Of a DNA stretch of 32,158 nucleotides, positions 4,163 to 16,608 are shown one piece after another. Location: positions 1 through 32,158 of the forward strand of contig JABRWB010000030.1 in assembly GCA_039961635.1 (NCBI GenBank), given 5' to 3'. A program made the position numbers and the translations under genes. The notes under the pieces were generated by a model that had not been told where the DNA came from, ran no database searches, and saw only the letters and a list, made by a program, of their open reading frames with translations. Source of the DNA: a bacterium. GTDB lineage: Bacteria > 4484-113 > JAGGVC01. Numbering within the stretch: the first letter of the stretch is position 1; each line of letters begins with the position of its first letter.

Positions 4163-5305
4163 CTACAAGTCGATTCCGGAAAACTCCGGAGAAATCCCGC
4201 TTTCGCGCAGGAACCGCAAAATCGCCGCGAATATTTCCGCGTCCTTTCCCAGTTCTTCCGGAGGCACAATTCCGGCCGCTTTCAGTTTTCCTTCGGCGAT
4301 GAGCAGCGCCGCCGCGACCGCTGGCAGCCCCGTCGTGCGAGCCATCGAGCTGTCGCCCGTGGACTTGTCCATACGCTCCAGCAGCCGCATTTCCGCGCAC
4401 GCGCTAGTTTGGCCGCGAACGCCTTTAACGTTTACATGCATCGCTGTGAATTCCGGCTCGCCGGGGCGCAGCTTCCACTCGCGGGACAAAAGAGCAGAGG
4501 TAACTTCCAGGGGTATCGCCTTTCCGTTCGTTGTCTGCACAGGCTCGGCGCTGAAGAATCCTAGCTCGCACAAAAGCTTCATTTTGTCCGCGTGTCCCGG
4601 ATAGCGCAGCGTTTTCTCGCGCATGTCGGGACAGTCCATCGTGCGCAGAAGCGTGCGTAGACCGTCGGTGTTGAAAGCCTCCAGCGTACCGACCCCCGGA
4701 AACTCGACGGTTTCGATTTCGGAAAGTGCGGGGCGCGTGACCGCTTTGCCGTTAACGCGCAGCCGCGCCGGCCGCTTGTATTCCTCGATTACGTCTGACG
4801 GCGAAAACGGCGCCTTGTATTCGGTTTTTCCGCTCCTGTCTTCAGGGAGGCCTCCGACCAGAATGCTTATCTCGTCACATCTGTCCATGGAAGCCGCGAA
4901 TCTCGCAGCCGCCATACCGCCCAGTCCAGGCATCACCCCGCAGTCCACGACCGCGGTTACGCCGTGCTCTTTTGCCAAACTATCCAGCTCGAACGGATCT
5001 TCCGGAAAAAACGAGATGTCAACCGTATTTTTCCCGGCGCGAATGACTGTTTCGAGCGACTTGAAACCCAGCTTCCCCGGCAAAGCTCCGATAATCAAAT
5101 CCGAATGGCTGGCAAGATTCGTGACTTCCCGCGCGTCCGACAGGTCGGCTCGCTTTATGGTAATTCCTTTTGTGTTCATAAGCCGCGCCAGCGGTTCGCC
5201 GTCCGCGTCCGCAGCGGTTACATGAAATCCTTGCTGCGCGAGCGTGCGGGCGATGAACCCGCCGACCATTCCGCAACCGAGAACAGCGATTTTGCCCTTC
5301 GACAT
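4163..5305 (-). CDS. Saccharopine dehydrogenase / lysine 6-dehydrogenase-like oxidoreductase
   Basis: This is an NAD(P)-dependent oxidoreductase of 380 residues. A Rossmann domain starts with the G-x-G-x-x-G motif (LGCGMVGG, residues 9-16). The catalytic domain carries VVDCGVMPGLGGM, LRYPGHADKMKLL and MARTTGLPAVAAALL, segments characteristic of the lysine-6-dehydrogenase branch of the saccharopine dehydrogenase family. That branch oxidises the epsilon-amino group of lysine to a semialdehyde/cyclic imine; true saccharopine dehydrogenases cleave or form saccharopine. The substrate here is inferred only. ATG 5305 follows GGCGGAG and is preferred over the in-frame GTG at 5311, which overlaps that ribosome site. 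The gene stands alone, with no lysine pathway genes nearby. Confidence 0.85.
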   Translation of the reverse strand: MSKGKIAVLGCGMVGGFIARTLAQQGFHVTAADADGEPLARLMNTKGITIKRADLSDAREVTNLASHSDLIIGALPGKLGFKSLETVIRAGKNTVDISFFPEDPFELDSLAKEHGVTAVVDCGVMPGLGGMAAARFAASMDRCDEISILVGGLPEDRSGKTEYKAPFSPSDVIEEYKRPARLRVNGKAVTRPALSEIETVEFPGVGTLEAFNTDGLRTLLRTMDCPDMREKTLRYPGHADKMKLLCELGFFSAEPVQTTNGKAIPLEVTSALLSREWKLRPGEPEFTAMHVNVKGVRGQTSACAEMRLLERMDKSTGDSSMARTTGLPAVAAALLIAEGKLKAAGIVPPEELGKDAEIFAAILRFLRESGISPEFSGIDL

Positions 5306-5349
5306 CCGCACTCCGCCGGAACAAAATTAACAGATATCCGGTTGGGCGG

Positions 5350-5393: not shown

Positions 5394-6161
5394 TTACGAA
5401 TGTTTGCGCGCCACTATCGTGACGCTTGACGCCGCGCCTTCGAGGCTTGCCGAAATGTCCTTCGTCAAAGGATCGTCGCAGGCGTTTTCAGCCGTGTAAA
5501 GCCTGTCGGAGGCGATTTCGATTTCACTCAAACCGGAGTCCTGAATCGCCTGCAGGTATTCTTCGCGCATAAGCGCGCCAGCGATGCAGGCGGCGTAAGC
5601 GTCAAGATCGGACGCGATGCTCATTGGAAGCGGGCGGTTGAGGACTATATCGGATACAACCATCTTGCCTCCCGGCTTGAGAACGCGGAATATCTCGCGG
5701 AACACTTGAGGTTTGTCGGGACTGAGATTAATGACGCAATTGGAAATAACCACGTCAACCGAGCCGTCCTCAACCGGAAGGCTCTCGATGTAAGCTTCGC
5801 GAAATTCCACATTTGACAATCCGGTTCTTGATTCGAGCTTTTTGGCGTTTTCGCGTGCAAGCTCCAACATTTCGGGAGTCATGTCCACTCCGATCGCGCG
5901 GCCGTCCGGCCCGGCTATTTCGGCCGCGATGAATACGTCTTTACCCGCGCCGCATCCGAGGTCGAGAACGACGTCGCCAGGCCGGATATGCCCGAAAGAA
6001 AGCGGATCGCCGCAGGACAATCCGAGGTCCGCCTCCGCCACCGGATTGGCCGATGCCTCCGGCGCGCCGGAGCAGCATGAGCCAGAAGGCCCGCAGCAGG
6101 AAGTCCTGCTGGTAGCTACCCTGGCATAAGCTTTTCTAACCGTTTTGCGGACATCCGCCAT
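5394..6161 (-). CDS. arsM: Arsenite S-adenosylmethionine methyltransferase ArsM
   Basis: ArsM methylates As(III) with S-adenosylmethionine in the cytoplasm, giving methylated arsenicals. Residue numbers here count from the longer ATG at 6170. The protein has the SAM-binding motif I VLDLGCGAGKDVF (68-80), an acidic post-I region GVDMTPEML, and the three cysteines expected for arsenic binding: Cys53 in LSCGDP, Cys145 in ISNCVINLS and Cys195 in AACIAGA. The N-terminus has an extra Cys pair cluster (SCCGPSGSCC, 24-33) common in bacterial ArsM. ATG 6161 (MADVRK) lies 9 nt after GAGG; the ATGs at 6170 and 6167 sit on or too close to that site. It is the last gene of arsR-arsC-acr3-arsM, 18 nt after acr3. 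Confidence 0.93.
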   Translation of the reverse strand: MADVRKTVRKAYARVATSRTSCCGPSGSCCSGAPEASANPVAEADLGLSCGDPLSFGHIRPGDVVLDLGCGAGKDVFIAAEIAGPDGRAIGVDMTPEMLELARENAKKLESRTGLSNVEFREAYIESLPVEDGSVDVVISNCVINLSPDKPQVFREIFRVLKPGGKMVVSDIVLNRPLPMSIASDLDAYAACIAGALMREEYLQAIQDSGLSEIEIASDRLYTAENACDDPLTKDISASLEGAASSVTIVARKHS

Positions 6162-6179
6162 TTGCATCATCCTCGGTTA

Positions 6180-7274
6180 TCAGGCCGTTTCCAGCCTGAA
6201 ATATTTTCGTTGAAAATAAAGCGCGACATTTACAAGCGAAATCAACACTGGAACTTCCACAAGCGGGCCGATTACCGCCGCGAACGCCACTCCCGAGCCG
6301 ATTCCATAAACCGCGACCGCGACCGCAATCGCAAGTTCGAAATTGTTCGATGCCGCCGTGAACGAAAGCGTCGCGGTTTTGGAATAATCCGCTCCGATGC
6401 GATGCCCGATGAAAAAGCTCACAAGAAACATCACGACGAAATAAATAAGCAGCGGAACCGCGATCCGCAGCACGTCCAGCGGAAGCTGGACGATGTACTC
6501 GCCCTTTAGCGAAAACATGACTACAATCGTGAACAGAAGCGCGATCAACGTTATCGGGCTGATTTTGGGAATAAACTTGCCGTGGTACCACTCTTTTCCC
6601 TTTGCGCGAACTAGCGCGAACCGCGTGAGCATCCCCGCGATGAACGGGATGCCGAGATAGATGAACACGCTCTGCGCGATCTGGCCTATCGAAATATCCA
6701 CTATGCTTCCCTTCAGTCCGAACATCGGCGGCAGCACGGTGATGAAAATCCACGCGTAAACGCTGAAAAAGAGCACCTGGAACACGCTGTTGAACGCGAC
6801 CAGTCCCGCGCAATATTCCGTATCTCCCTTTGCAAGCTCGTTCCACACGATGACCATCGCGATGCATCGAGCAAGGCCGATCATTATCAAACCGACCATA
6901 TACTCCGGGTGGTTCGGTAGGAAGATAATCGCAAGGAAAAACATCAGTATCGGGCCGATGATCCAGTTCTGGACGAGCGAAACAAGAAGAATCTTCCAGT
7001 TGCGGAAGACGTCGCCCAGCTCTTCGTAACGAACTTTCGCGAGCGGCGGGTACATCATCAGAATCAGTCCAATCGCAATCGGAACATTCGTCGTCCCCGA
7101 ATTGAACCGGTTGATGAATGATTCGACGCCGGGCACAAAGTAGCCCAGTCCCACTCCCGCTGTCATTGCTAGAAATATCCAGAGAGTAAGGTAACGATCG
7201 AGAAAAGAAAGTCTGCCGGCAATTCCGCGACCACAAACAGGCGCGACCGAAGCGCCAATTGACTCCGAACTCAT
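6180..7274 (-). CDS. acr3: Arsenite efflux permease, ACR3 family
   Basis: Acr3 is an inner-membrane carrier that extrudes arsenite using the proton-motive force. The 364-residue protein has about ten membrane helices. The diagnostic motif [19 protein letters not shown] contains the conserved helix-4 cysteine (Cys137), and [15 protein letters not shown] contains the helix-9 glutamate (Glu313). Both are essential in characterised Acr3 proteins. The start overlaps the arsC stop codon (ATGA, 4 nt), and AAGGAG lies 8 nt before it, so translation is probably coupled. The first 25 residues are a non-conserved cytoplasmic tail. It works on the product of ArsC, encoded just upstream. Confidence 0.95.
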
Positions 7275-7717
7275 TTTTGGTGCTCCTTCTCCTTCATTTC
7301 TTCTATCAAGTCCGGCAATCCTTGAACGAACCGCCGGATTTCTTCGCGCACGCGGCGATACACGTTCAACACTTCCTCTTCGCCGATTAGTCCGCGCGCA
7401 AGCATGGGCGGGTCTTCAAATCCTTTGTGATAAGTCATCGCCGCTCCGGGAATAATCGGACAAACTTCCCGAGCATGGTCGCAAACGGTAACGGCGATGT
7501 CGAAACTCTGGCCGTCGAATTCCGAAACGTGCTTGCTGCGCGCGTTCGATATATCCACTCCCGCTTCCTTCATCACGGCGACCGCGCGCGGATCCACACC
7601 GTCGGGCGCGACTCCGGCGGAAAACGCCTCGATGCTGTCGGCAAAGAGATAACGCGCCCAGCCTTCGGCCATCTGGCTGCGGCACGCGTTGCCCGTGCAA
7701 ACGAAAAGAATCCTCAT
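7271..7717 (-). CDS. arsC: Arsenate reductase, thioredoxin-coupled (LMW-phosphatase fold)
   Basis: ArsC reduces As(V) to As(III). The 148-residue sequence belongs to the low-molecular-weight phosphatase-like class known from Staphylococcus, not the glutaredoxin-dependent class. It has the P-loop CTGNACRS (Cys7-x5-Arg13), the two relay cysteines Cys79 (VTVCDHA) and Cys86 (EVCPIIPG), and the general acid Asp102 (EDPP). The cysteine cascade ends in a disulfide that thioredoxin reduces. The open frame runs 37 codons further upstream inside arsR, but ATG 7717 gives the standard N-terminus [10 protein letters not shown]. It overlaps arsR (ATGA) and acr3 (ATGA) by 4 nt each. The two thioredoxin-like genes in the neighbouring operon are possible electron donors. 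Confidence 0.95.
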
Positions 7718-8082
7718 TTTTGCTTTACCCAAGTGCAGAGTTCCTCCGGGGGAGTTTTGAGCAGGTTTTTCAGCTTCGCCGCGTCTTTTTTGGCCTGCGC
7801 GGAGTCGCGCGCGGCGTCGCACGCCCATTCGAGCGCGCGGATCGCTTCCCGCGGCGCGGATTTTTTGTCAGCCAGCCGGTAGAAAACCCAGCGCCCGTCC
7901 TTGCGCGGCTCAATCAATCCGGCGCCGCGCAGAATCGAAATGTGCTTCGACACCGTGGACGGAGCGAGATCCAAAAGCTCCACCATCTGGCATACGCACA
8001 GCTCGCGCCCGGCAAGCGCAAGCACGATGCGCACACGTCCTTCGTCCGAAAGCGCAGCCGCGATTTTGGTCAGTTCCTTCAT
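7714..8082 (-). CDS. arsR: ArsR-family metalloid-responsive repressor
   Basis: ArsR is a winged-helix homodimer that represses ars genes and releases DNA when it binds As(III) or Sb(III). This protein has 122 residues. The helix-turn-helix is near ELLDLAPSTVSKHISILRGAGL. The metal motif E-L-C-V-C-Q (Cys29, Cys31) lies at the start of the DNA-binding helix region as in classical ArsR. Further cysteines occur at WACDAA and near the C-terminus (ELCTW). The gene heads arsR-arsC-acr3-arsM. A 24-bp inverted repeat lies 21 nt upstream of its ATG and overlaps the likely -10 box, as expected for autorepression. The same element precedes the upstream operon at 12191-12214. The Shine-Dalgarno is weak. 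Confidence 0.94.
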   Translation of the reverse strand: MKELTKIAAALSDEGRVRIVLALAGRELCVCQMVELLDLAPSTVSKHISILRGAGLIEPRKDGRWVFYRLADKKSAPREAIRALEWACDAARDSAQAKKDAAKLKNLLKTPPEELCTWVKQK

Positions 8083-8102
8083 TGAGTCACACCCGCAATT
8101 CG

Positions 8103-8126
8103 ATACTTCGCCAAGTGACGAATTAT
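8103..8126. promoter_or_regulatory. Putative ArsR operator before arsR (copy 1)
   Basis: An inverted repeat has arms ATACTTCG and CGAATTAT around an 8-nt spacer, with one arm mismatch. It lies between the ccdA stop and the arsR start. On the minus strand it overlaps a GATAAT box (8122-8127), so a bound repressor would block transcription of arsR-arsC-acr3-arsM. A 24-nt stretch (8099-8122) is identical to 12187-12210, before the permease operon. The two sites are about 4.1 kb apart, and I saw no other complete copy in the window. Confidence 0.75.
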
Positions 8127-8132
8127 CTTAAC

Positions 8133-8846
8133 CTAGTTTCCGAAAATCAGCCAAATCCCGGCCGCGGCGAAGACGGTGCCCGCGACGCGCTTAAGCCACA
8201 AATTCGCGGCCGCGAGCCGGCTGTCTCCGACAAGCCGGGAAGCAATTTCCATACTAAGTCCTGCGATTATCACCAAAACACAATGGCCGATGGAGTAGAA
8301 CAAAAGCAAAACGAATCCGTAAAACGCCGTTCCCGCGCCTGACGCGTCCACCGCGCCGCCCGCGATAATCGCCAGAATCACCGCAAGCACCGGCGTCGCG
8401 CACGGCGCGCTGATGAATCCGAACGCGATTCCAAGCAAAAGCGCGCCCAGCCATCCGGCCGATGCGCGCTTTACGCGCTCGGGCAGCGGAATGTTGATTT
8501 CGAGCAAACCGAACAAATGCAGCGCGACCAGCAGGCAGATTATCGCCGCGGGCAGCTTCCATAAATCCCCCAAGGCGGTCGCAGCCCTTCCGATGCCGAC
8601 CGCAGCCAGCCCGAAAAGCGTGAACGTGAAAGCAAGCCCCAATGTGAACAGAAGCACCGAGGCGATTCGCCTTCCGCGGCTTTCGCGCCCCGTTCCCTGC
8701 GCCGCGAGAAACGCGAGGAGCAGCGGAACCGACGCGATCACGCATGGATTCGCCGCGGTCAGCATCCCGCCCAAAAGCGCGGCGGCCGGCGCCCAGAGCG
8801 GCCGCGATTCGAGCGCGGAAGAGATGGATTGGACGAGCGATTCCAA
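8133..8846 (-). CDS. ccdA: CcdA/DsbD-type transmembrane thiol electron carrier
   Basis: CcdA proteins pass electrons from cytoplasmic thioredoxin across the inner membrane to external thioredoxin-like proteins. This 237-residue protein has about six membrane helices. One conserved cysteine is in AANPCVIASVP (Cys35) and the other in ISAPCATPVLAVIL (Cys149), the redox pair of the family. The likely start is TTG 8846, with AAAGGCGG at a usable distance. It begins 3 nt after the stop of the membrane-anchored thioredoxin gene, which suggests the two proteins are partners. It is the last gene of the seven-gene operon and ends 50 nt before arsR with no visible terminator, so read-through into the ars operon is possible. 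A cytochrome c maturation role is less likely here because no ccs genes are nearby. Confidence 0.88.
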   Translation of the reverse strand: MESLVQSISSALESRPLWAPAAALLGGMLTAANPCVIASVPLLLAFLAAQGTGRESRGRRIASVLLFTLGLAFTFTLFGLAAVGIGRAATALGDLWKLPAAIICLLVALHLFGLLEINIPLPERVKRASAGWLGALLLGIAFGFISAPCATPVLAVILAIIAGGAVDASGAGTAFYGFVLLLFYSIGHCVLVIIAGLSMEIASRLVGDSRLAAANLWLKRVAGTVFAAAGIWLIFGN

Positions 8847-8849
8847 AGA

Positions 8850-9383
8850 CTAACCGCCTTTGGCGGAGCCGCCCGTTTGTCCGCCTTCATTTTTGCCGCT
8901 CGGACCGGTCAGGCGCGCGACGATTTCGTCCACGGTCAGCACGCCGACGTGCCGCCAGGTCTCGTTGCCTTGCGCGTCGAAAAAAATCTGCGTCGGTATT
9001 ATCGAAATGCCGGCGAGCTTTGTTTGCTCCTGCTGTTCGTACACATTCACGAACATAATCGTAGCGGCGTCTCCGACCTTCGGCCTCGCTTCGGACATGT
9101 TTTTGTCCATTTCAATGCATGGAATGCAGTTGAGGCTTCCGAAATCGACCATCGCAGGTTTGCCCGCCGGCACTCCCAGCCTCGCCGCCAGCCCCCGATC
9201 TTCTCCCGCGAGATTAACCTGACCGGCGCGGTTTTCGGGCTGAGTTTCGGCGACCCCTCGCGCTGCGTCTCGGGGCTGCTCCGAGTCGCTTGGATGAACT
9301 TGCTTGGGCTGTTGCCTGAGACTCCATGCTCCCACCGCGAGCAAAATCACGCCAGCGACCCATATCAGAGATTTTGCTTTCAC
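8850..9383 (-). CDS. Membrane-anchored thioredoxin-fold protein facing the periplasm
   Basis: This 177-residue protein starts with a Lys-containing N-terminus and one membrane helix (about 5-21), then a Gln/Pro/Glu-rich linker (22-65). A thioredoxin domain follows with the active site L-N-C-I-P-C (Cys86, Cys89) and a cis-proline region IIPTQIFFD. The topology implies that the domain faces the periplasm, where CcdA, encoded next, could reduce it. The start is GTG 9383, which overlaps the previous gene's stop as GTGA. The open frame extends 79 codons upstream only as a shadow of the small thioredoxin gene. The C-terminus is Gly-rich. Its client is unknown; arsenical or metal-thiol chemistry is suggested only by the operon. 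Confidence 0.85.
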   Translation of the reverse strand: MKAKSLIWVAGVILLAVGAWSLRQQPKQVHPSDSEQPRDAARGVAETQPENRAGQVNLAGEDRGLAARLGVPAGKPAMVDFGSLNCIPCIEMDKNMSEARPKVGDAATIMFVNVYEQQEQTKLAGISIIPTQIFFDAQGNETWRHVGVLTVDEIVARLTGPSGKNEGGQTGGSAKGG

Positions 9384-9646
9384 GCGCCGCTCCCGGTTTC
9401 GCTTTGTGAAAGCCGTGTAGTAATTATCGAGGTCAGCTCCGGCATAGTCGGAAGCTTTCCGGACAGGACCAGTTTCCCGTCGATCGCGAGCCCAGGAGTC
9501 ATCATGACGCCCGCGGCAATGATCTTGTTTAAATCGGTAACTTTTGAAAAATCGGCTTCGACGCCGAGATTTCTCAATACCGACCTGGTTCTGTTTTCCA
9601 ACTCGATGCACTTGGCGCATCCAGTACCGAATATCTCAACCTTCAT
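9380..9646 (-). CDS. Small redox-active thioredoxin-like protein (TM0996/MTH895 type)
   Basis: This is an 88-residue cytoplasmic thioredoxin-fold protein. It starts MKVEIFGTGCAKC with the active site Cys10-A-K-Cys13, and later has the V-M-M-T-P-G cis-proline segment and the family ending around KLPTMPEL. The family is known as glutaredoxin-like small redox proteins in thermophiles and methanogens. It is often found beside ArsP/YraQ-type permeases, as here. It may take electrons from the ferredoxin or from thioredoxin reductase and pass them to ArsC or CcdA; this is inferred from context. The stop overlaps the start of the membrane-anchored thioredoxin (GTGA). A 45-nt gap separates it from the ferredoxin gene. 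Confidence 0.9.
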   Translation of the reverse strand: MKVEIFGTGCAKCIELENRTRSVLRNLGVEADFSKVTDLNKIIAAGVMMTPGLAIDGKLVLSGKLPTMPELTSIITTRLSQSETGSGA

Positions 9647-9691: not shown

Positions 9692-9982
9692 CTATTTAAA
9701 TCCCGCGGCAACTTGTTTGACAAGTTCGGCAAGCAGCTCCTTCGTTGCGCCTTTGTCCGGAAACGAAATCGCTTCCAGCGGACAGAATCCGGCGCACTTG
9801 TCGCACATCACCACGCAGTTAAATGGATTCGACACGATCATTTTCGATCCGTCGCCTGCAAGCTCGTACACTCCGTTTGGACAGGTATCAAGGCACTCGC
9901 CGCAGCCGGCACAATGATCTTCGTCGATTTCGGGTTCCCAAGGGATTCGCTCTCTTGGAATGCCCATGTATGTTCCTGCCAC
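9692..9982 (-). CDS. Two-cluster ferredoxin (4Fe-4S)
   Basis: This 96-residue ferredoxin-like protein has two Fe-S motifs. The first is canonical, H-C-A-G-C-G-E-C-L-D-T-C-P. The second is spaced C-x3-C-x2-C-x3-C-P (CVVMCDKCAGFCP), one residue longer than usual in its first gap. The N-terminal segment GIPRERIPWEPEID before the first cluster and the ending AISFPD mark a subfamily of stand-alone ferredoxins. GTG 9982 has AAGGAG 8 nt upstream; ATG 9967 (MGIPRER) is an alternative with CAGGA. It begins 12 nt after the HdrA-like gene. As a low-potential carrier it could feed electrons into the thiol relay encoded downstream. That link is inferred. Confidence 0.88.
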   Translation of the reverse strand: MAGTYMGIPRERIPWEPEIDEDHCAGCGECLDTCPNGVYELAGDGSKMIVSNPFNCVVMCDKCAGFCPLEAISFPDKGATKELLAELVKQVAAGFK

Positions 9983-9994
9983 TATTTCGACTCC

Positions 9995-10405
9995 TTAAAT
10001 CGCGGGCTCCCCTGAGCGCGGTTTAACCGCTGCAAGGATTTTTTGAAATACGGACTCCGTATCTTCCTGCGCCATGCTCACTGGAATCCAGTTTGCTTCC
10101 GTCATCGGCACGCCTGCCTTTTCGAAGCCGTCCCTGAGCAGCTTTTCCTGTCGCTTCTCCGCGCAGGCCGGCGTTATGAAGGCGATATCCCGGTTGAGCA
10201 GCCGCCCCATCAGTCTCTCGCCGTCTTCTTCGCAAAGGCGCGGGTGCAATGCGATGAATTCGATTTCATTTCCGAGTTCCAATCTCGCTCGCTCCGACAA
10301 TACCCAGAAGTCAATCCTCGCCATGCTCGGGCACGCGCCGCTGCTTGAGCAAATCAAAACCGCGGGTTTCCGGAAAGTTGCGTGTTCGACTGACTTATCT
10401 TCCAT
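9995..10405 (-). CDS. Cys-containing protein resembling the N-terminal part of HdrA
   Basis: This 136-residue soluble protein starts with VLICSSSGACPSM and contains ALHPRLCEEDGERL and FITPACAEKRQEKLLRDGF. The order and spacing (an N-terminal Cys segment, then a Cys before an acidic stretch, then a Cys-x-x-(R/K) helix) resemble the N-terminal Cys-rich domain of heterodisulfide reductase subunit A. The FAD and ferredoxin domains of HdrA are absent. The likely role is as an electron-transfer or complex-forming partner of the adjacent ferredoxin and the MTHFR-C-like protein. The start overlaps the upstream gene by 11 nt, so translation is probably coupled. The homology is judged by eye and is weak; it could be an uncharacterised family. 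Confidence 0.6.
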   Translation of the reverse strand: MEDKSVEHATFRKPAVLICSSSGACPSMARIDFWVLSERARLELGNEIEFIALHPRLCEEDGERLMGRLLNRDIAFITPACAEKRQEKLLRDGFEKAGVPMTEANWIPVSMAQEDTESVFQKILAAVKPRSGEPAI

Positions 10406-10937
10406 CTTGCGCTCCTTCTGATTTGGTCGGTCCGATCTGGACTGGATAGGCCGAATCGAGCCGCCTGAATCTTTGCTCCGAAACGTATTTCATCCTGCAT
10501 CCCTGCTCGTCGAATCTGCAATGGCCGCAGGATAAACAGGCAAGCTCGCCTTTTACTCCCGGTCCGAGTGTGTCAAGACCGGGAATTATGCGCACTTGCG
10601 GCAACGAGTTTCTGAGGCAGAGCAAACCAGCGCCGCAAGAAAGAGCCAAAACCTGCAAATCCTTATTGGCAGGATCAAATCGCGGCGCGATTTTTTCCCT
10701 TACCGCCTTGGGGTCACAAAGCCCTTCTTCGAGAGCGTCAACAAGCTCCGGCAACCGCTTTACCCGCACTTTCGCGCCGGACAGCAATTCGCGCATTTCG
10801 GCTACCTGTACCGTGCCGCCCGTTTCGCTCGTCTTCGCGCACTTGTCGCACCCGAGCACAACCGTGCTTCGCGAAGGCGTCAGGCGCAGCAATTCCAAAA
10901 TCTCCTGAAACTCCTTTTTCTTAGTTATTACGCTCAT
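10395..10937 (-). CDS. Methylenetetrahydrofolate reductase C-terminal-domain (MetV-like) Cys-rich protein
   Basis: This 180-residue protein has eight or more cysteines in the pattern of the MTHFR C-terminal domain family, which includes the zinc-binding MetV subunit of acetogen MTHFR. The motifs are LGCDKCAKTSETGG (Cys30, Cys33), LALSCGAGLLCLRN (Cys101, Cys107) and ACLSCGHCRFDEQGC (Cys134, 137, 140, 147). It is not fused to or next to a MetF-type catalytic subunit, so a role in one-carbon metabolism is not shown. Between an arsenical-type permease and an HdrA-like protein plus ferredoxin, it may act as a metal- or methyl-handling or electron-transfer module. The family call is fairly good; the function in this operon is unknown and is one of the main points of interest. 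Confidence 0.72.
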   Translation of the reverse strand: MSVITKKKEFQEILELLRLTPSRSTVVLGCDKCAKTSETGGTVQVAEMRELLSGAKVRVKRLPELVDALEEGLCDPKAVREKIAPRFDPANKDLQVLALSCGAGLLCLRNSLPQVRIIPGLDTLGPGVKGELACLSCGHCRFDEQGCRMKYVSEQRFRRLDSAYPVQIGPTKSEGAQDGR

Positions 10938-10955: not shown

Positions 10956-12140
10956 TTAAAACAACGCACCGAAAATCCATCCTGAAACCGTCGCAAGCGC
11001 GACAACCAGAACGACGAACGCAACGGTCTTTTTCGTTCCGATGAACGAATTGATCACGAGCATGCTTGGCAGACTGACCGCGGGGCCCGCCAGGAGCATC
11101 GCGAGCGCCGGTCCCTTGCCCATTCCGCTTCCGATGAGCCCCTGCAAAATCGGCACCTCGGTCAGCGTCGCGAAATACATGAACGCGCCCGCGATTGCGG
11201 CGAAAAGGTTCGCCGCGATTCCGTTTCCGCCCACCAGCGCGGATATCCATTCGGATGGAATCACGCCCTCGTTTCCCGGCCTTCCCAGGAAAAATCCGGC
11301 GGCGATTACGCCCAGAAACAGTAGCGGGAAGATCTGCTTGGCATACGACCAGCTTTCGCGCGTCCAGTCGGAAAGCTCATTGCGCTTGAACCAGAGCAGG
11401 ATTGTTACCGCCAGAAGCAAAAGCGCCGCGCCCGAAAGCCACCACTTGACGGCGAACACCGCGGCGAAGAATCCAGCACCGGTCTTGGGATTGGCCCAGT
11501 TGGCGAAAACGAGGAACGCGACCATGGAAAACAGGTACAGCGCGTCCTGCCAAAGCTTGCGCCCGGCTTTGGAAGCGCCGCTATTTTCCGCCGCGGCGGC
11601 GGCCAGCCGCTCGCCGTCCGCCCCGTCCTTCCGGAACAGGAACGCCATCGCAAGGCCGATGACTATCGAAAAGATCACCGCGCCCGCTGCCCGCGCCGCG
11701 CCTATTTCCCAGCCCAGTATCCGCGCCGTGAGGATTATCGCGAGCACGTTGATCGCCGGGCCGCTGTACAGAAACGCAATAGCGGGACCGAGACCCGCGC
11801 CGCGCCTGTAAATGCTTGCGAACATCGGAAGTACCGTGCAGGAGCAGACCGCGAGAATCGTTCCCGAAACGGATGCCACTCCGTATGCCAGGATTTTGCT
11901 CGCGCCCGCGCCAAGGTAGCGCATAACCGCTTCCTTGCTTATGAAAACGCTGATCGCGCCCGCGATGAAAAACGCGGGGACGAGGCAAAGAAGCACGTGC
12001 TCGCGCGCGTACCATTTGGCCAATTCAAGCGCTTCCAGCACCGCGTTGTCGAACCGCGCCGCGCCGACGGGCAGGAAGTACGCGGCCAGGAACACCGCGA
12101 TAACCGCCGCAAGCGCTTTCAGTTCGGCTCTGGTATCCAA
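10956..12140 (-). CDS. Permease of the ArsP / YraQ (UPF0718) family
   Basis: This integral membrane protein has 394 residues and about ten helices in two related halves. The first half has the conserved V-C-S-C-T-V-L-P motif (Cys99, Cys101) followed by FLYSGPAINVLAI. The second has LTEVPILQGLI and the matching LLAGPAVSLPSMLVI. Family members include ArsP, which exports trivalent organoarsenicals such as methylarsenite, and permeases linked to other metals. The product of ArsM would be a plausible substrate here. TTG 12140 follows AGAGGCG by 6 nt. The gene heads the seven-gene operon, and an ArsR-type inverted repeat lies 50 nt upstream. Export of methylarsenicals is inferred from family and regulation. 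Confidence 0.88.
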   Translation of the reverse strand: MDTRAELKALAAVIAVFLAAYFLPVGAARFDNAVLEALELAKWYAREHVLLCLVPAFFIAGAISVFISKEAVMRYLGAGASKILAYGVASVSGTILAVCSCTVLPMFASIYRRGAGLGPAIAFLYSGPAINVLAIILTARILGWEIGAARAAGAVIFSIVIGLAMAFLFRKDGADGERLAAAAAENSGASKAGRKLWQDALYLFSMVAFLVFANWANPKTGAGFFAAVFAVKWWLSGAALLLLAVTILLWFKRNELSDWTRESWSYAKQIFPLLFLGVIAAGFFLGRPGNEGVIPSEWISALVGGNGIAANLFAAIAGAFMYFATLTEVPILQGLIGSGMGKGPALAMLLAGPAVSLPSMLVINSFIGTKKTVAFVVLVVALATVSGWIFGALF

Positions 12141-12190
12141 TTCATTCGCCTCTAACCGGCGAAGATATCGAGAACAATAAACTCACTTCG

Positions 12191-12214
12191 ATACTTCGCC
12201 AAGTGACGAAGTAT
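12191..12214. promoter_or_regulatory. Putative ArsR operator before the permease/redox operon (copy 2)
   Basis: A perfect inverted repeat has arms ATACTTCG and CGAAGTAT around an 8-nt spacer. On the minus strand its distal end overlaps a TACAAT -10-like box (12213-12218), placing a bound repressor over the promoter of the permease gene. No good -35 box is visible. The site shares a 24-nt identical stretch with the one before arsR, including a TTCG flank outside the arms. It is the better palindrome of the two. Confidence 0.75.
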
Positions 12215-13406: not shown

Positions 13407-15404
13407 CTACCCGCCCACGACAACGATCGCCTCCTGGCTGGGCGCGCCAAGCGTGCGGCTGAACCGGTCGTACGGGTACACGACGTAAGTGTGCTCGCCG
13501 ACGGGCGCGGTCCAGTCGGTGTAGGTGACCGTGGGCCAAAGCTCGATCAGGTGCGTGCGCTCCGGGTAGGGTTCGAGACTGACGGCGCCGATCGCCTCGC
13601 CGTCGCGGAAGACGTAGTATCCCGTGACGCGGGAGAGGTAGTTGAGGGCGATCGGGGTAACATCGGAAATATCAACAAAACCGTCTCTTCCGCCGTCTAT
13701 CTGGCTGTCGATGTCATCGTTATTTCCGTCATTGGCGCTTTCCAATAACCTCCATGCCAGCGGCATAAAATCAGCCATGGTTCCGATGAAATCGCCATTG
13801 TAATCTCCGCGGACCGAGGCGCGCCAATTGAGAACAACATGGTTTTGTGCTGAATCGAATAATGCATTCAATTCGCCTCCACCATGGTATGGAGCTCTTG
13901 GAGTCATCGGCTCCGCGGCCGGCAATCCCGACGACCTCCACTCAAATGGCGCTGCCACGACGCGCAAAGGAATTCTGTCCGGGTTCGCCATTCCTCTTTC
14001 GTAGCTGTACGCCAGCAGGTTATCGGGCTGTCTACCATCAATGGCAAAGTCGTTGATTATGAAATCCCCCAAAAACACCAATCCATTCGATTGCACGGAT
14101 TCGGGAAAAAAGCGGAATTGCGTTATCGTGGTTTTATCCTCAATAATTTCCAGCCAGGTTTGGACGGCCTCGTTGTCGGAAACATACGAATGAGCCTGCT
14201 GCATTCCGGACGCCGAAATGGAACCGGAGTACTCAAGAATAATCTCGTACGCCGGAATGCCGCCATCAAATTCGTTCGCGCACACGATGAAGTCCACTTT
14301 GCCTGGAACTCCGACTTCGACAGCGTCGATCCAAATTGAATTAGGCCCCGAAGTCGGAGCACTGACCACGGCGTAACTGAAATACTCCTTGTCAATTCCG
14401 TACTTGTTGCTTACTTCAATGTAGCCGCCAAATACCCCTCGTTCAATAAGCTCGACGGATACGTTTGCCGCGTCAGCCGCGAAAGGAGCAGCGCCTGAGC
14501 CGAAATGCCATTCGTAGACGAGCGGCGGAGTACCTGTCGAATCGACCGAGAATTCCAGGATATCGCCTGGAGAACCGGCCTTGTTGAGATAGTTTCCGCC
14601 CATTATTTTCGGCCTGGCCTTGACCGCAACCGGATCGCTCGGGGCAAGCAACATACCCTCCCGATTGCGGGGTACAATCCATACGAAATTCGGATATTCC
14701 GTAAGTTCGAATTCATAACCGTCAAGCATTGCCCTGGGCTCGCTTACCGGGGATTTTGCCGGTAATTCACCGAGTATCGTGCCGCCGGGTTTATCATCGG
14801 AATAAGACGCATAGACCACATAGCTTGAAATCGTCGTGCCGAAATTCAATGCGATGGCAGTAATGTCGCCGATTCCAACCTCCCCGCTTCCGTCGTCGTC
14901 CAACCACCTCAAATAAATGTAGTCGCCTTCAACACCGTTGGAATCTGAACCGAAATTGGCCGCAATCGGAGTCAAGTCACCGATTCCCACTTCGCCGTCC
15001 AAATTGTAATCTCCACGGTTGCTGTACGACCACCTGATTCTGTCCGTTGTCGCAAACAACACTGCATCGGTTACCTTTCCGGAATAAGCAACAGCGGAAG
15101 CGGACTTATTCGAAAAGCGGTTTTCCATAAGCTGCCCGACCAACTCCGCCCGCAGCATCGCGAATGCTTTTTCATCCACCCCATCCGGCGGCGTGTAGCT
15201 TTCCACCTCCTCCAGGATGTCGGACAGCGGACGCGCCGCGGGTACCGAAACGTCTTGCGCGGAAGGCGACAAAGAGCCGGTTTCCGCGAATTTCCGATCG
15301 GGAGTTTTTTGCGGGAGCGCGCCGCTTATGCGCCGCTCACCGCCGGAGCATGAGGCGAACAAGACCAAGGCCGCCAGGAGGGCCGATGAGTACCGTACTT
15401 TCAT
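13407..15404 (-). CDS. Lipoprotein with dockerin-like repeats, a PKD-like and a cohesin-like region
   Basis: This is a predicted lipoprotein of 665 residues with lipobox F-A-S-C (Cys19). Residues about 131-190 hold two dockerin-type calcium loops (GDYNLDGEVGIGDLTPIA, then DDDGSGEVGIGDITAIA), each an EF-hand-like D-x-N/D-x-D/S-G followed by a helix. A PKD-like beta domain follows (LEFSVDSTGTPPLVYEWHFG). Next is a cohesin-like stretch (KVDFIVCANEFDGGIPAYEIILEYSG). A second dockerin-like pair lies at about 515-590 (GDYNGDFIGTMADFMPLA and a later D-G-F-V-D-I-S-D loop). The C-terminus is a fibronectin-like beta domain. Dockerin and cohesin modules bind each other in cellulosomes, but no catalytic domain is present here, so a surface-assembly role is only inferred. 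AAGGAGG precedes the ATG. Confidence 0.85.
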   Translation of the reverse strand: MKVRYSSALLAALVLFASCSGGERRISGALPQKTPDRKFAETGSLSPSAQDVSVPAARPLSDILEEVESYTPPDGVDEKAFAMLRAELVGQLMENRFSNKSASAVAYSGKVTDAVLFATTDRIRWSYSNRGDYNLDGEVGIGDLTPIAANFGSDSNGVEGDYIYLRWLDDDGSGEVGIGDITAIALNFGTTISSYVVYASYSDDKPGGTILGELPAKSPVSEPRAMLDGYEFELTEYPNFVWIVPRNREGMLLAPSDPVAVKARPKIMGGNYLNKAGSPGDILEFSVDSTGTPPLVYEWHFGSGAAPFAADAANVSVELIERGVFGGYIEVSNKYGIDKEYFSYAVVSAPTSGPNSIWIDAVEVGVPGKVDFIVCANEFDGGIPAYEIILEYSGSISASGMQQAHSYVSDNEAVQTWLEIIEDKTTITQFRFFPESVQSNGLVFLGDFIINDFAIDGRQPDNLLAYSYERGMANPDRIPLRVVAAPFEWRSSGLPAAEPMTPRAPYHGGGELNALFDSAQNHVVLNWRASVRGDYNGDFIGTMADFMPLAWRLLESANDGNNDDIDSQIDGGRDGFVDISDVTPIALNYLSRVTGYYVFRDGEAIGAVSLEPYPERTHLIELWPTVTYTDWTAPVGEHTYVVYPYDRFSRTLGAPSQEAIVVVGG

Positions 15405-15451
15405 TTCATCCTCCTTGAAATCTTCGGGGAGGCGGGGGGAAGGACAGCCTT

Positions 15452-15479
15452 ATTTTACCCCGAAACGCCGGGATTTCAA
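15452..15479 (-). promoter_or_regulatory. Promoter of the 665-residue dockerin-like lipoprotein
   Basis: On the minus strand TTGAAA, a 16-nt spacer and TAAAAT lie about 50 nt upstream of the ATG at 15404. With the plus-strand promoter at 15533-15561 it makes a divergent promoter pair in the 187-nt gap between the two lipoprotein genes. Confidence 0.55.
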
Positions 15480-15532
15480 GCGCGAAATCCGGATTTCGGC
15501 CCGTTTCGGAAAAAAAAAATATGGCGCAGCAG

Positions 15533-15561
15533 TTGCGAAAAACCGGAATTTGCGGTATAAT
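15533..15561 (+). promoter_or_regulatory. Promoter of the 338-residue dockerin-like lipoprotein
   Basis: TTGCGA, a 17-nt spacer and a perfect TATAAT lie about 30 nt before the ATG at 15592. The ribosome site AAGGAGG is at 15580-15586. This is one of the clearest sigma-70-type promoters in the window. Confidence 0.7.
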
Positions 15562-15591
15562 CGAAACAGCCCGCTGGATAAGGAGGCTGTG

Positions 15592-16608
15592 ATGTTCCGG
15601 CATTATTTTTATACCATTTTGGTCGGAATTCTTGCGCTTTCGTCATGCTCGGCGGGAAGCGCACCCGCCCCGCAAACCCCTAGCGCGCCGCCCGCGGCGG
15701 CAGTTTCGCCCGATTCCATGCGCCACGGCGCGGACGGCGAAACGATGGCGCTGCTTTTGGCCGAGTTCGACCGGATCCGCGCGCAGGCGGAGGCCAATCC
15801 CTCTCCCCCCCCCGACGTTCCGGTGCATTTCTTCTTGGACGAGTACGCGTCCGTAGTCAGGATCCTTTACCCCAACGTCGGCGACTACAACCTGGACGGC
15901 GAGGTGGGGATCTCCGACCTATCGGTGCTGGCCGCCCGGTTCGGGGCGAGCAAAACCGACGGGGACAACGACCTTTTGGACATGTGGCTCGACTCGGACG
16001 GCAGCGGGGACGTGGGCGTGGGCGACGTGACGCTGGTCGCGCTGCGGTTCATGTCAAAACTCGAAGGATTCAAGGTCTGGAACACCCAAAGCAACTGGAG
16101 CAGGCTCCTTCCGCCGCCCCCCGCACCGGAGGATCAACAAAGCCTCGGCTACTTCGAGTTCAACCCCGGCATGCTGGATGATGGTTTTTCGATTTACCAA
16201 ATACTGCCGTCATTGAACGATGTTTACTGGGCTATCGAGGCGGTTTACAGCGGGCCGCGCCGCCCGGAAGTAATCATGCCGGAAGATCGGATTATCAGGT
16301 GGGACGGGTACGAAATAATTACCGAACCGGAAACAAACCAACGAATCGCGGTGGAAAGCGGGAAGGTGAACGTAATTCTTTCATTCCCTTACAAGCTGGG
16401 CTCGCCGTTGTTCCAAACCTTCCTTTCGGAAAAAGGCGCCCGCGCCTTGTCCGCGGACATGGAAGACCGGTCGTTCAAAGTTCTGCTGCCTCCGGACATT
16501 TCCATTCTGCAGGCGGTCGCGGACTGGCCAAATGAAAAGCCGGACATGTTCTACGAAGTCTCGCCAATCCGGGTTTTCGGCGGCGGGGACATCGAATTGG
16601 ACGGTTAG
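15592..16608 (+). CDS. Lipoprotein with a dockerin-like calcium-loop pair
   Basis: This is a predicted lipoprotein of 338 residues with a signal peptide and lipobox L-S-S-C (Cys19), then a Pro/Ala-rich linker. Residues about 97-152 are a dockerin-like pair (GDYNLDGEVGISDLSVLA, then DSDGSGDVGVGDVTLVA), closely matching the pair in the divergent neighbour. The remaining 180 residues are mixed alpha/beta without a recognised motif. ATG 15592 has AAGGAGG 5 nt upstream and a clear promoter; the frame is open further upstream but without a start of this quality. The shared repeat and divergent layout suggest the two lipoproteins are related in function, perhaps displayed together. No cohesin partner is identified with confidence. 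Confidence 0.85.
   Translation: MFRHYFYTILVGILALSSCSAGSAPAPQTPSAPPAAAVSPDSMRHGADGETMALLLAEFDRIRAQAEANPSPPPDVPVHFFLDEYASVVRILYPNVGDYNLDGEVGISDLSVLAARFGASKTDGDNDLLDMWLDSDGSGDVGVGDVTLVALRFMSKLEGFKVWNTQSNWSRLLPPPPAPEDQQSLGYFEFNPGMLDDGFSIYQILPSLNDVYWAIEAVYSGPRRPEVIMPEDRIIRWDGYEIITEPETNQRIAVESGKVNVILSFPYKLGSPLFQTFLSEKGARALSADMEDRSFKVLLPPDISILQAVADWPNEKPDMFYEVSPIRVFGGGDIELDG

What the first reader, a model, noticed from the sequence alone, without database searches (positions are those of the whole stretch)
9692..10937. MetV-like, HdrA-like and ferredoxin genes together in an arsenic-regulated operon
Three small proteins with cysteine patterns of anaerobic C1/electron-transfer enzymes (the MTHFR C-terminal zinc domain, the N-terminal Cys domain of HdrA, and a two-cluster ferredoxin with an unusual second motif) are encoded with overlapping or nearly touching genes, but without MetF, full HdrA, HdrBC or hydrogenase. 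This suggests a reduced electron-transfer or methyl/metal-handling complex repurposed for arsenical chemistry. I know of no described function for this trio next to ArsP and ArsM.
Basis: partly seen in the sequence, partly recalled or inferred. Interest (0 to 1): 0.75.

Follow-up and report, generated by a model that had tools for sequence, protein, structure and literature searches.

The report
Iron-sulphur protein pair in arsenic operons
Two small iron-sulphur proteins, a cut-down piece of the enzyme HdrA and an unusual ferredoxin, sit side by side in arsenic-resistance operons of at least five unrelated bacterial phyla, which suggests an undescribed way of feeding electrons into arsenic detoxification.

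Summary
The three genes are real, tightly packed and on the minus strand inside an ars gene set (ArsP, MetV-like, HdrA-like, ferredoxin, ArsE, thioredoxin, CcdA | ArsR, ArsC, Acr3, ArsM). An identical 24-base palindrome-containing element lies upstream of both ArsP and ArsR, so both units are probably ArsR-controlled. The conserved unit is a pair, not a trio. In 34 standalone HdrA-N-like loci from 33 genomes, 31 have the ferredoxin directly adjacent, always with the odd CX3CX2CX3-4C second motif. Gene order flips between clades. An ArsR with the CxC arsenite motif lies within 6 kb in 22 of 34, and Acr3 in 10, in five phyla; full-length HdrA controls gave none. The standalone protein keeps HdrA's cluster cysteines and adds one that HdrA lacks, as if to complete the [4Fe-4S] site on its own. 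The MetV-like protein is a shortened MetV homologue, found otherwise only in one Acidobacteria ars cluster; the genome has no MetF. Best reading: an arsenic-induced, ferredoxin-dependent electron feed for the operon's thiol redox proteins (ArsE/Trx/CcdA) and thus ArsC. The module's existence is well supported; its electron acceptor is inferred. I found no description of it in the papers searched.

The parts
12187..12210 (-). putative ArsR operator copy 1 (TTCGTCACTTGGCGAAGTATCGAA), 46 nt upstream of ArsP
   Evidence: identical copy at 8099-8122; 0 expected in 100 shuffles
10956..12140 (-). ArsP/YraQ-type permease (ArsP_1), first gene of the unit
   Evidence: PF03773 E 7.7e-72
10395..10937 (-). 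MetV-like protein, shortened; keeps eight cysteines of the MetV core, lacks the C-terminal NGPCGG...C part
   Evidence: MetV profile E 5e-21; alignment A3; close relative in L009 ars cluster
9995..10405 (-). HdrAl: standalone protein like the N-terminal [4Fe-4S] domain of HdrA (C19, C25, C58, C81; S at position 21)
9692..9982 (-). ferredoxin with CX2CX2CX3C and CX3CX2CX3C motifs, partner of HdrAl
   Evidence: Fer4_7 E 9e-10; same second motif in all 31 partners
9380..9646 (-). ArsE / MTH895-family small thioredoxin (redox-active disulfide protein 2)
   Evidence: TIGR00412 88.5 bits, cut-off 62
8850..9383 (-). membrane-anchored thioredoxin-like protein, probable GTG start at 9383
   Evidence: PF13098/PF00085, start
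8133..8846 (-). CcdA/DsbD transmembrane electron carrier
   Evidence: PF02683 E 2e-13
8099..8122 (-). putative ArsR operator copy 2, 16 nt upstream of ArsR
7714..8082 (-). ArsR with CVC arsenite motif
   Evidence: PF01022, NF033788; motif
7271..7717 (-). ArsC, low-molecular-weight phosphatase (thioredoxin) type
   Evidence: sequence and position, LMWP-type CTGNACRS motif; start; matches ArsC genes in ars clusters of other genomes
6180..7274 (-). Acr3 arsenite efflux permease
   Evidence: sequence; homologues in ars clusters of other genomes
5394..6170 (-). ArsM arsenite methyltransferase
   Evidence: NF008823 289 bits, above cut-off

Best explanation
The core is a conserved two-protein iron-sulphur module: HdrAl, a free-standing HdrA N-terminal-domain protein, and its dedicated ferredoxin. 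It is made under control of an arsenite-sensing ArsR. Proposed mechanism: electrons from the cell's low-potential (reduced ferredoxin) pool enter the dicluster ferredoxin, pass to the [4Fe-4S] cluster of HdrAl, and from there reduce the operon's thiol proteins (ArsE, the membrane thioredoxin and CcdA), which in turn serve ArsC and keep arsenic trivalent for ArsM, Acr3 and ArsP. Shown by sequence: the pair, its conserved cysteines, its repeated ars/ArsR context, and the shared operator-like element. Inferred: cluster binding, direction of electron flow, and the acceptor. The MetV-like protein is a local extra iron-sulphur subunit that probably docks on the same module, as MetV is thought to do with HdrA in type IV methylene-THF reductases.
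For: 31 of 34 standalone HdrAl genes are adjacent to the CX3C ferredoxin on the same strand, in both gene orders. CxC-type ArsR within 6 kb in 22/34 and Acr3 in 10/34, in five phyla; within 1.5 kb, 16 and 7 of 34 against 0 and 0 of 34 full-length HdrA loci. The Acr3 label needs at least three changes on the tree, so the association was probably made more than once. HdrA cysteine columns C9/C46/C69 are invariant, and C15 is present in 31/32 HdrAl but 0/28 HdrA; in HdrA the fourth ligand comes from another HdrA chain (PMC9012536). ArsE, thioredoxin and CcdA lie beside the pair in the window, L087, L089 and L090; this redox trio in ars operons was proposed as an arsenate-reduction system (PMC2963123). 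A ferredoxin and a redox-active disulfide protein lie beside arsC-1 of Fusibacter, whose authors propose ferredoxin-linked arsenate reduction (PMC9751042). Identical operator-like 24-mers lie upstream of ArsP and ArsR.
Against: In the phylum of G200 the usual unit is only ArsR-Fd-HdrAl, with no ArsE, ArsC or CcdA nearby, so the acceptor need not be those proteins. An ordinary NADPH-type thioredoxin reductase is present in this genome, so the thiol proteins already have a reductant. No cluster, potential or interaction has been measured. Structure models were too poor to use.
Confidence: 0.42

Rival explanations
1. Direct reductase: the HdrAl cluster itself, with an open or labile iron site, reduces or binds the arsenical (arsenate, methylarsenate or thioarsenate), so the pair is a new kind of arsenic reductase.
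For: The pair stands alone with a CxC ArsR in many genomes, so it may be sufficient. Three invariant HdrA-type cysteines leave one iron open if C15 is not a ligand.
Against: C15 is nearly universal and could close the site; ArsC is present in the window; no catalytic motif is known.
Confidence: 0.18
2. Sulphur or persulphide module: HdrAl and ferredoxin handle sulphane sulphur or lipoate-bound dithiols, in the manner of sHdr systems, and the arsenic link is indirect (shared thiol chemistry, thioarsenic species).
For: L020 has ArsE-HdrAl-Fd followed by a DGC::GcvH fusion, two more DGC-type genes and a lipoate-ligase-like gene; DGC genes also flank L021, L087 and L121.
Against: The window and its nearest relatives L088-L090 and L094 lack DGC, GcvH and ligase; their neighbours are Acr3, ArsP, ArsR and ArsC.
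Confidence: 0.17
3. Metallochaperone or arsenic sink: the small cysteine-rich proteins bind As(III) and pass it to Acr3/ArsP, as ArsD does.
For: Many conserved cysteines; adjacency to Acr3, with only a Usp gene between them, in L088-L090.
Against: The cysteines follow iron-sulphur motifs shared with HdrA and ferredoxins.
Confidence: 0.08
4. Methyl handling: the MetV-like protein works in C1 transfer to or from arsenic with ArsM.
For: MetV homology; ArsM in the same gene set.
Against: MetV is described as the iron-sulphur subunit beside the flavin subunit MetF (PMC8760232), and no MTHFR gene is in the genome; L009, which carries the other MetV-like gene, showed no ArsM in the 13.9 kb seen.
Confidence: 0.04

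Closest known systems
HdrA (heterodisulfide reductase subunit A), N-terminal domain
   Same: Cluster cysteine columns C9, C46 and C69 invariant; profile and NCBIfam matches
   Different: Standalone 117-136 aa; no FAD/thioredoxin-reductase domain or ferredoxin domains in the chain, no HdrBC beside it; extra cysteine at C15
CcdA + thioredoxin + redox-active disulfide protein 2 in ars operons (PMC2963123)
   Same: The same three genes follow the ferredoxin here, with ArsC
   Different: That paper's main text mentions no ferredoxin or heterodisulfide reductase; the pair would be an added electron input
MetV, small subunit of MetVF methylene-THF reductases
   Same: N-terminal and core region with eight cysteines, about 34% identity to the best MetV
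   Different: Lacks the C-terminal part; no MetF in the genome; PF12225 does not match
HgcB ferredoxin of mercury methylation
   Same: Among the best NCBIfam matches of the ferredoxin (E 1.6e-9)
   Different: 37.5 bits against a cut-off of 99; no cysteines after the second motif; no HgcA beside it
Fusibacter sp. 3D3 arsC-1 context (PMC9751042)
   Same: Ferredoxin and redox-active disulfide protein beside arsC; ferredoxin-linked arsenate reduction proposed
   Different: No HdrA is mentioned there; its ferredoxin was not compared here

Membership tests
HdrA | N-terminal domain with cluster cysteines | tested here: met
   columns C9, C46, C69 invariant; the window lacks C11
HdrA | FAD-binding thioredoxin-reductase domain and ferredoxin domains in the same chain | tested here: not met
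   136-aa ORF with no such domain
HdrA | HdrB/HdrC partners encoded beside it | tested here: not met
   none in the gene set
HdrA | bound [4Fe-4S] cluster | not testable with these tools
   needs protein
MetV / type II MTHFR small subunit | homologous core with conserved cysteines | tested here: met
   E 5e-21 to an independent MetV profile
MetV / type II MTHFR small subunit | C-terminal cysteine part / PF12225 | tested here: not met
   absent
MetV / type II MTHFR small subunit | MetF partner in the genome | tested here: not met
   no PF02219 in a 96%-complete genome; 11 of 14 control genomes respond
2[4Fe-4S] ferredoxin | two CX2CX2CX3C motifs | tested here: not met
   first canonical, second CX3CX2CX3C, in the window and (with CX3-4C) in 30 relatives
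ars operon | arsenite-type ArsR with CxC motif plus arsenic transporter | tested here: met
ars operon | shared operator linking the two transcription units | tested here: inconclusive
   identical 24-mers upstream of ArsP and ArsR; binding not tested
HgcB | score above curated cut-off, HgcA neighbour | tested here: not met
   37.5 against 99 bits
ArsEFG (roxarsone/nitarsone system) | ArsE with its ArsF and ArsG partners | tested here: inconclusive

The most novel reading that the evidence does not exclude
HdrAl plus its ferredoxin is by itself an undescribed iron-sulphur arsenic-reducing (or thioarsenic-reducing) enzyme system, ArsR-induced, widespread in anaerobes and independent of ArsC.
Probability: 0.18. 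Interest if true: 0.78.

Novelty: new variant of a known kind. Interest (0 to 1): 0.56.

Why it matters
Arsenic detoxification is usually described as NADPH- or thiol-driven. A conserved, ArsR-controlled ferredoxin/HdrA-fragment pair in several phyla would tie arsenic handling directly to the low-potential electron pool of anaerobes. It would offer a concrete candidate for ferredoxin-linked arsenate reduction, which has been proposed for ArrAB-free arsenate reducers, and it defines a protein family that has no Pfam model.

Tried and rejected
Trio as a conserved unit: rejected, because MetV-like relatives were absent from 247 genomes of the G232 phylum at 1e-12 and from 288 relatives at 1e-15. 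Plasmid spread: no tblastn match of the MetV-like or HdrAl protein in 72,556 plasmids. HgcB identity of the ferredoxin: rejected by score and motifs. Need for the pair because thioredoxin reductase is missing: rejected, it is present. AlphaFold of HdrAl (pLDDT 47) and of the MetV-like protein (pLDDT 63; no PDB fold match at E<=0.001) gave nothing usable. MetV profile against PDB sequences: no match. Searches of open-access papers found no description of HdrA-like plus ferredoxin in ars operons.

Full report
What is in the window. The minus strand carries two adjoining arsenic units: ArsP permease (12140-10956), MetV-like (10937-10395), HdrA-like (10405-9995), ferredoxin (9982-9692), ArsE-family thioredoxin (9646-9380), membrane thioredoxin (9383-8850) and CcdA (8846-8133); then ArsR (8082-7714), ArsC (7717-7271), Acr3 (7274-6180) and ArsM (6170-5394). 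Identities rest on Pfam and NCBIfam for ArsP, the ferredoxin, ArsE, thioredoxin, CcdA, ArsR and ArsM, and on sequence plus homologues in other ars clusters for ArsC and Acr3. From ArsP to CcdA the genes overlap or lie at most 45 nt apart; the CcdA-ArsR gap is 50 nt.

Regulation. The gaps in front of ArsP and in front of ArsR hold an identical 24-mer, TTCGTCACTTGGCGAAGTATCGAA, at 12187-12210 and 8099-8122. It is not expected once in 100 shuffles even with three mismatches allowed. The ArsP copy is centred on the palindrome TACTTCG-N8-CGAAGTA. The ArsR carries the CVC arsenite motif. The simplest reading is one ArsR controlling both units; binding is not shown.

What the three proteins are. HdrA-like: the window protein alone matches no curated family. 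A profile of eight family members has HdrA chains as its three best PDB hits, and NCBIfam HdrA models match members. The same profile picks up full-length HdrA in many genomes. In aligned match columns C9, C46 and C69 are invariant in both the standalone proteins and HdrA, C11 is shared by all but one protein of each set, and C15 is present in 31/32 standalone proteins but 0/28 HdrA. In HdrA one ligand of the N-terminal cluster comes from another HdrA chain (PMC9012536). I infer that C15 supplies the missing ligand in the free-standing version. The window protein lacks only C11, so that residue is probably not essential.

MetV-like: a profile of true MetV proteins hits it at 5e-21 with all core cysteines, but the C-terminal part is missing and neither MetV nor MetF was found elsewhere in the genome.

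The neighbourhood test. Profile and protein searches covered 289 genomes across the domain and four further phyla. They gave 34 standalone HdrAl loci in 33 genomes. The ferredoxin is adjacent in 31. The order is HdrAl-Fd in the window type and Fd-HdrAl in the G200-phylum type, a flip that keeps the pair together. A CxC-type ArsR lies within 6 kb in 22 loci, on the same strand in 20 of them. Acr3 lies within 6 kb in 10 loci spread over five phyla. With the same 1.5 kb rule, 34 full-length HdrA loci gave no Acr3 and no ArsR, against 7 and 21 for standalone loci; this control is incomplete on the downstream side because the HdrA reading frames are long. The tree needs at least three changes for the Acr3 label. 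The window's nearest relatives (66-73% identity) are all in Acr3 loci of another phylum, several as Acr3-Usp-HdrAl-Fd, and none carries the MetV-like gene. The only close MetV-like relative (54%) is in an Acidobacteria cluster ArsR-ArsE-thioredoxin-CcdA-ProC-Acr3-cytochrome-MetV-like, without the pair.

How it probably works. ArsE, thioredoxin and CcdA in ars operons were proposed as a redox system for ArsC (PMC2963123). In Fusibacter a ferredoxin and a redox-active disulfide protein lie beside arsC-1, and ferredoxin-driven arsenate reduction was proposed (PMC9751042). The pair described here has the right parts to be the input of such a chain: low-potential ferredoxin, HdrAl cluster, thiol proteins, ArsC. 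The bare ArsR-Fd-HdrAl units of the G200 phylum show that the usual acceptors are not always encoded nearby, which keeps direct arsenical reduction and a sulphur role open. The DGC/GcvH/lipoate-ligase neighbours of L020 are the best argument for the sulphur or lipoate rival.

Limits. No structure model was usable. Function, metal content and partners are all inferred. Absence of a published description is only absence from the open-access papers searched.

Noticed in passing
window 12187-12210 and 8099-8122, minus strand: Identical 24-base operator-like element upstream of ArsP and of ArsR.
   Followed up: partly
L020 5600-8355: After ArsE-HdrAl-Fd: a DGC::GcvH (lipoyl carrier) fusion, two more DGC-type genes, a lipoate-protein ligase-like gene and a carboxymuconolactone-decarboxylase-like gene; looks like a dedicated lipoylated carrier beside an ars cluster.
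   Followed up: partly
L009 2578-3420, L019 9462-10247, L087 3674-4480, L089 14209-15012, L092 5261-6043: A ProC-like (pyrroline-5-carboxylate reductase family) gene recurs beside CcdA, thioredoxin, Acr3 or HdrAl-Fd in several phyla.
   Followed up: no
L088 2038-2922 and the same position in L089, L090: A Usp (universal stress) gene lies between Acr3 and HdrAl in three loci, giving the order Acr3-Usp-HdrAl-Fd.
   Followed up: partly
L089 9787-10236 and L091 7916-8323: A small CoA-binding-domain-like protein adjoins the HdrAl-Fd pair, downstream in one locus and upstream in the other.
   Followed up: no
L023 8135-8350: The ferredoxin's first motif has D in place of the second cysteine (CIGDFVC), as in aspartate-ligated [4Fe-4S] ferredoxins.
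   Followed up: no
window 13407-16608: Two large secreted-type proteins with dockerin-like repeats (NLDGEVGIGDLT...), divergently oriented just upstream of the ars units.
   Followed up: no
window 4163-5311: Saccharopine-dehydrogenase-like gene directly downstream of ArsM on the same strand.
   Followed up: no
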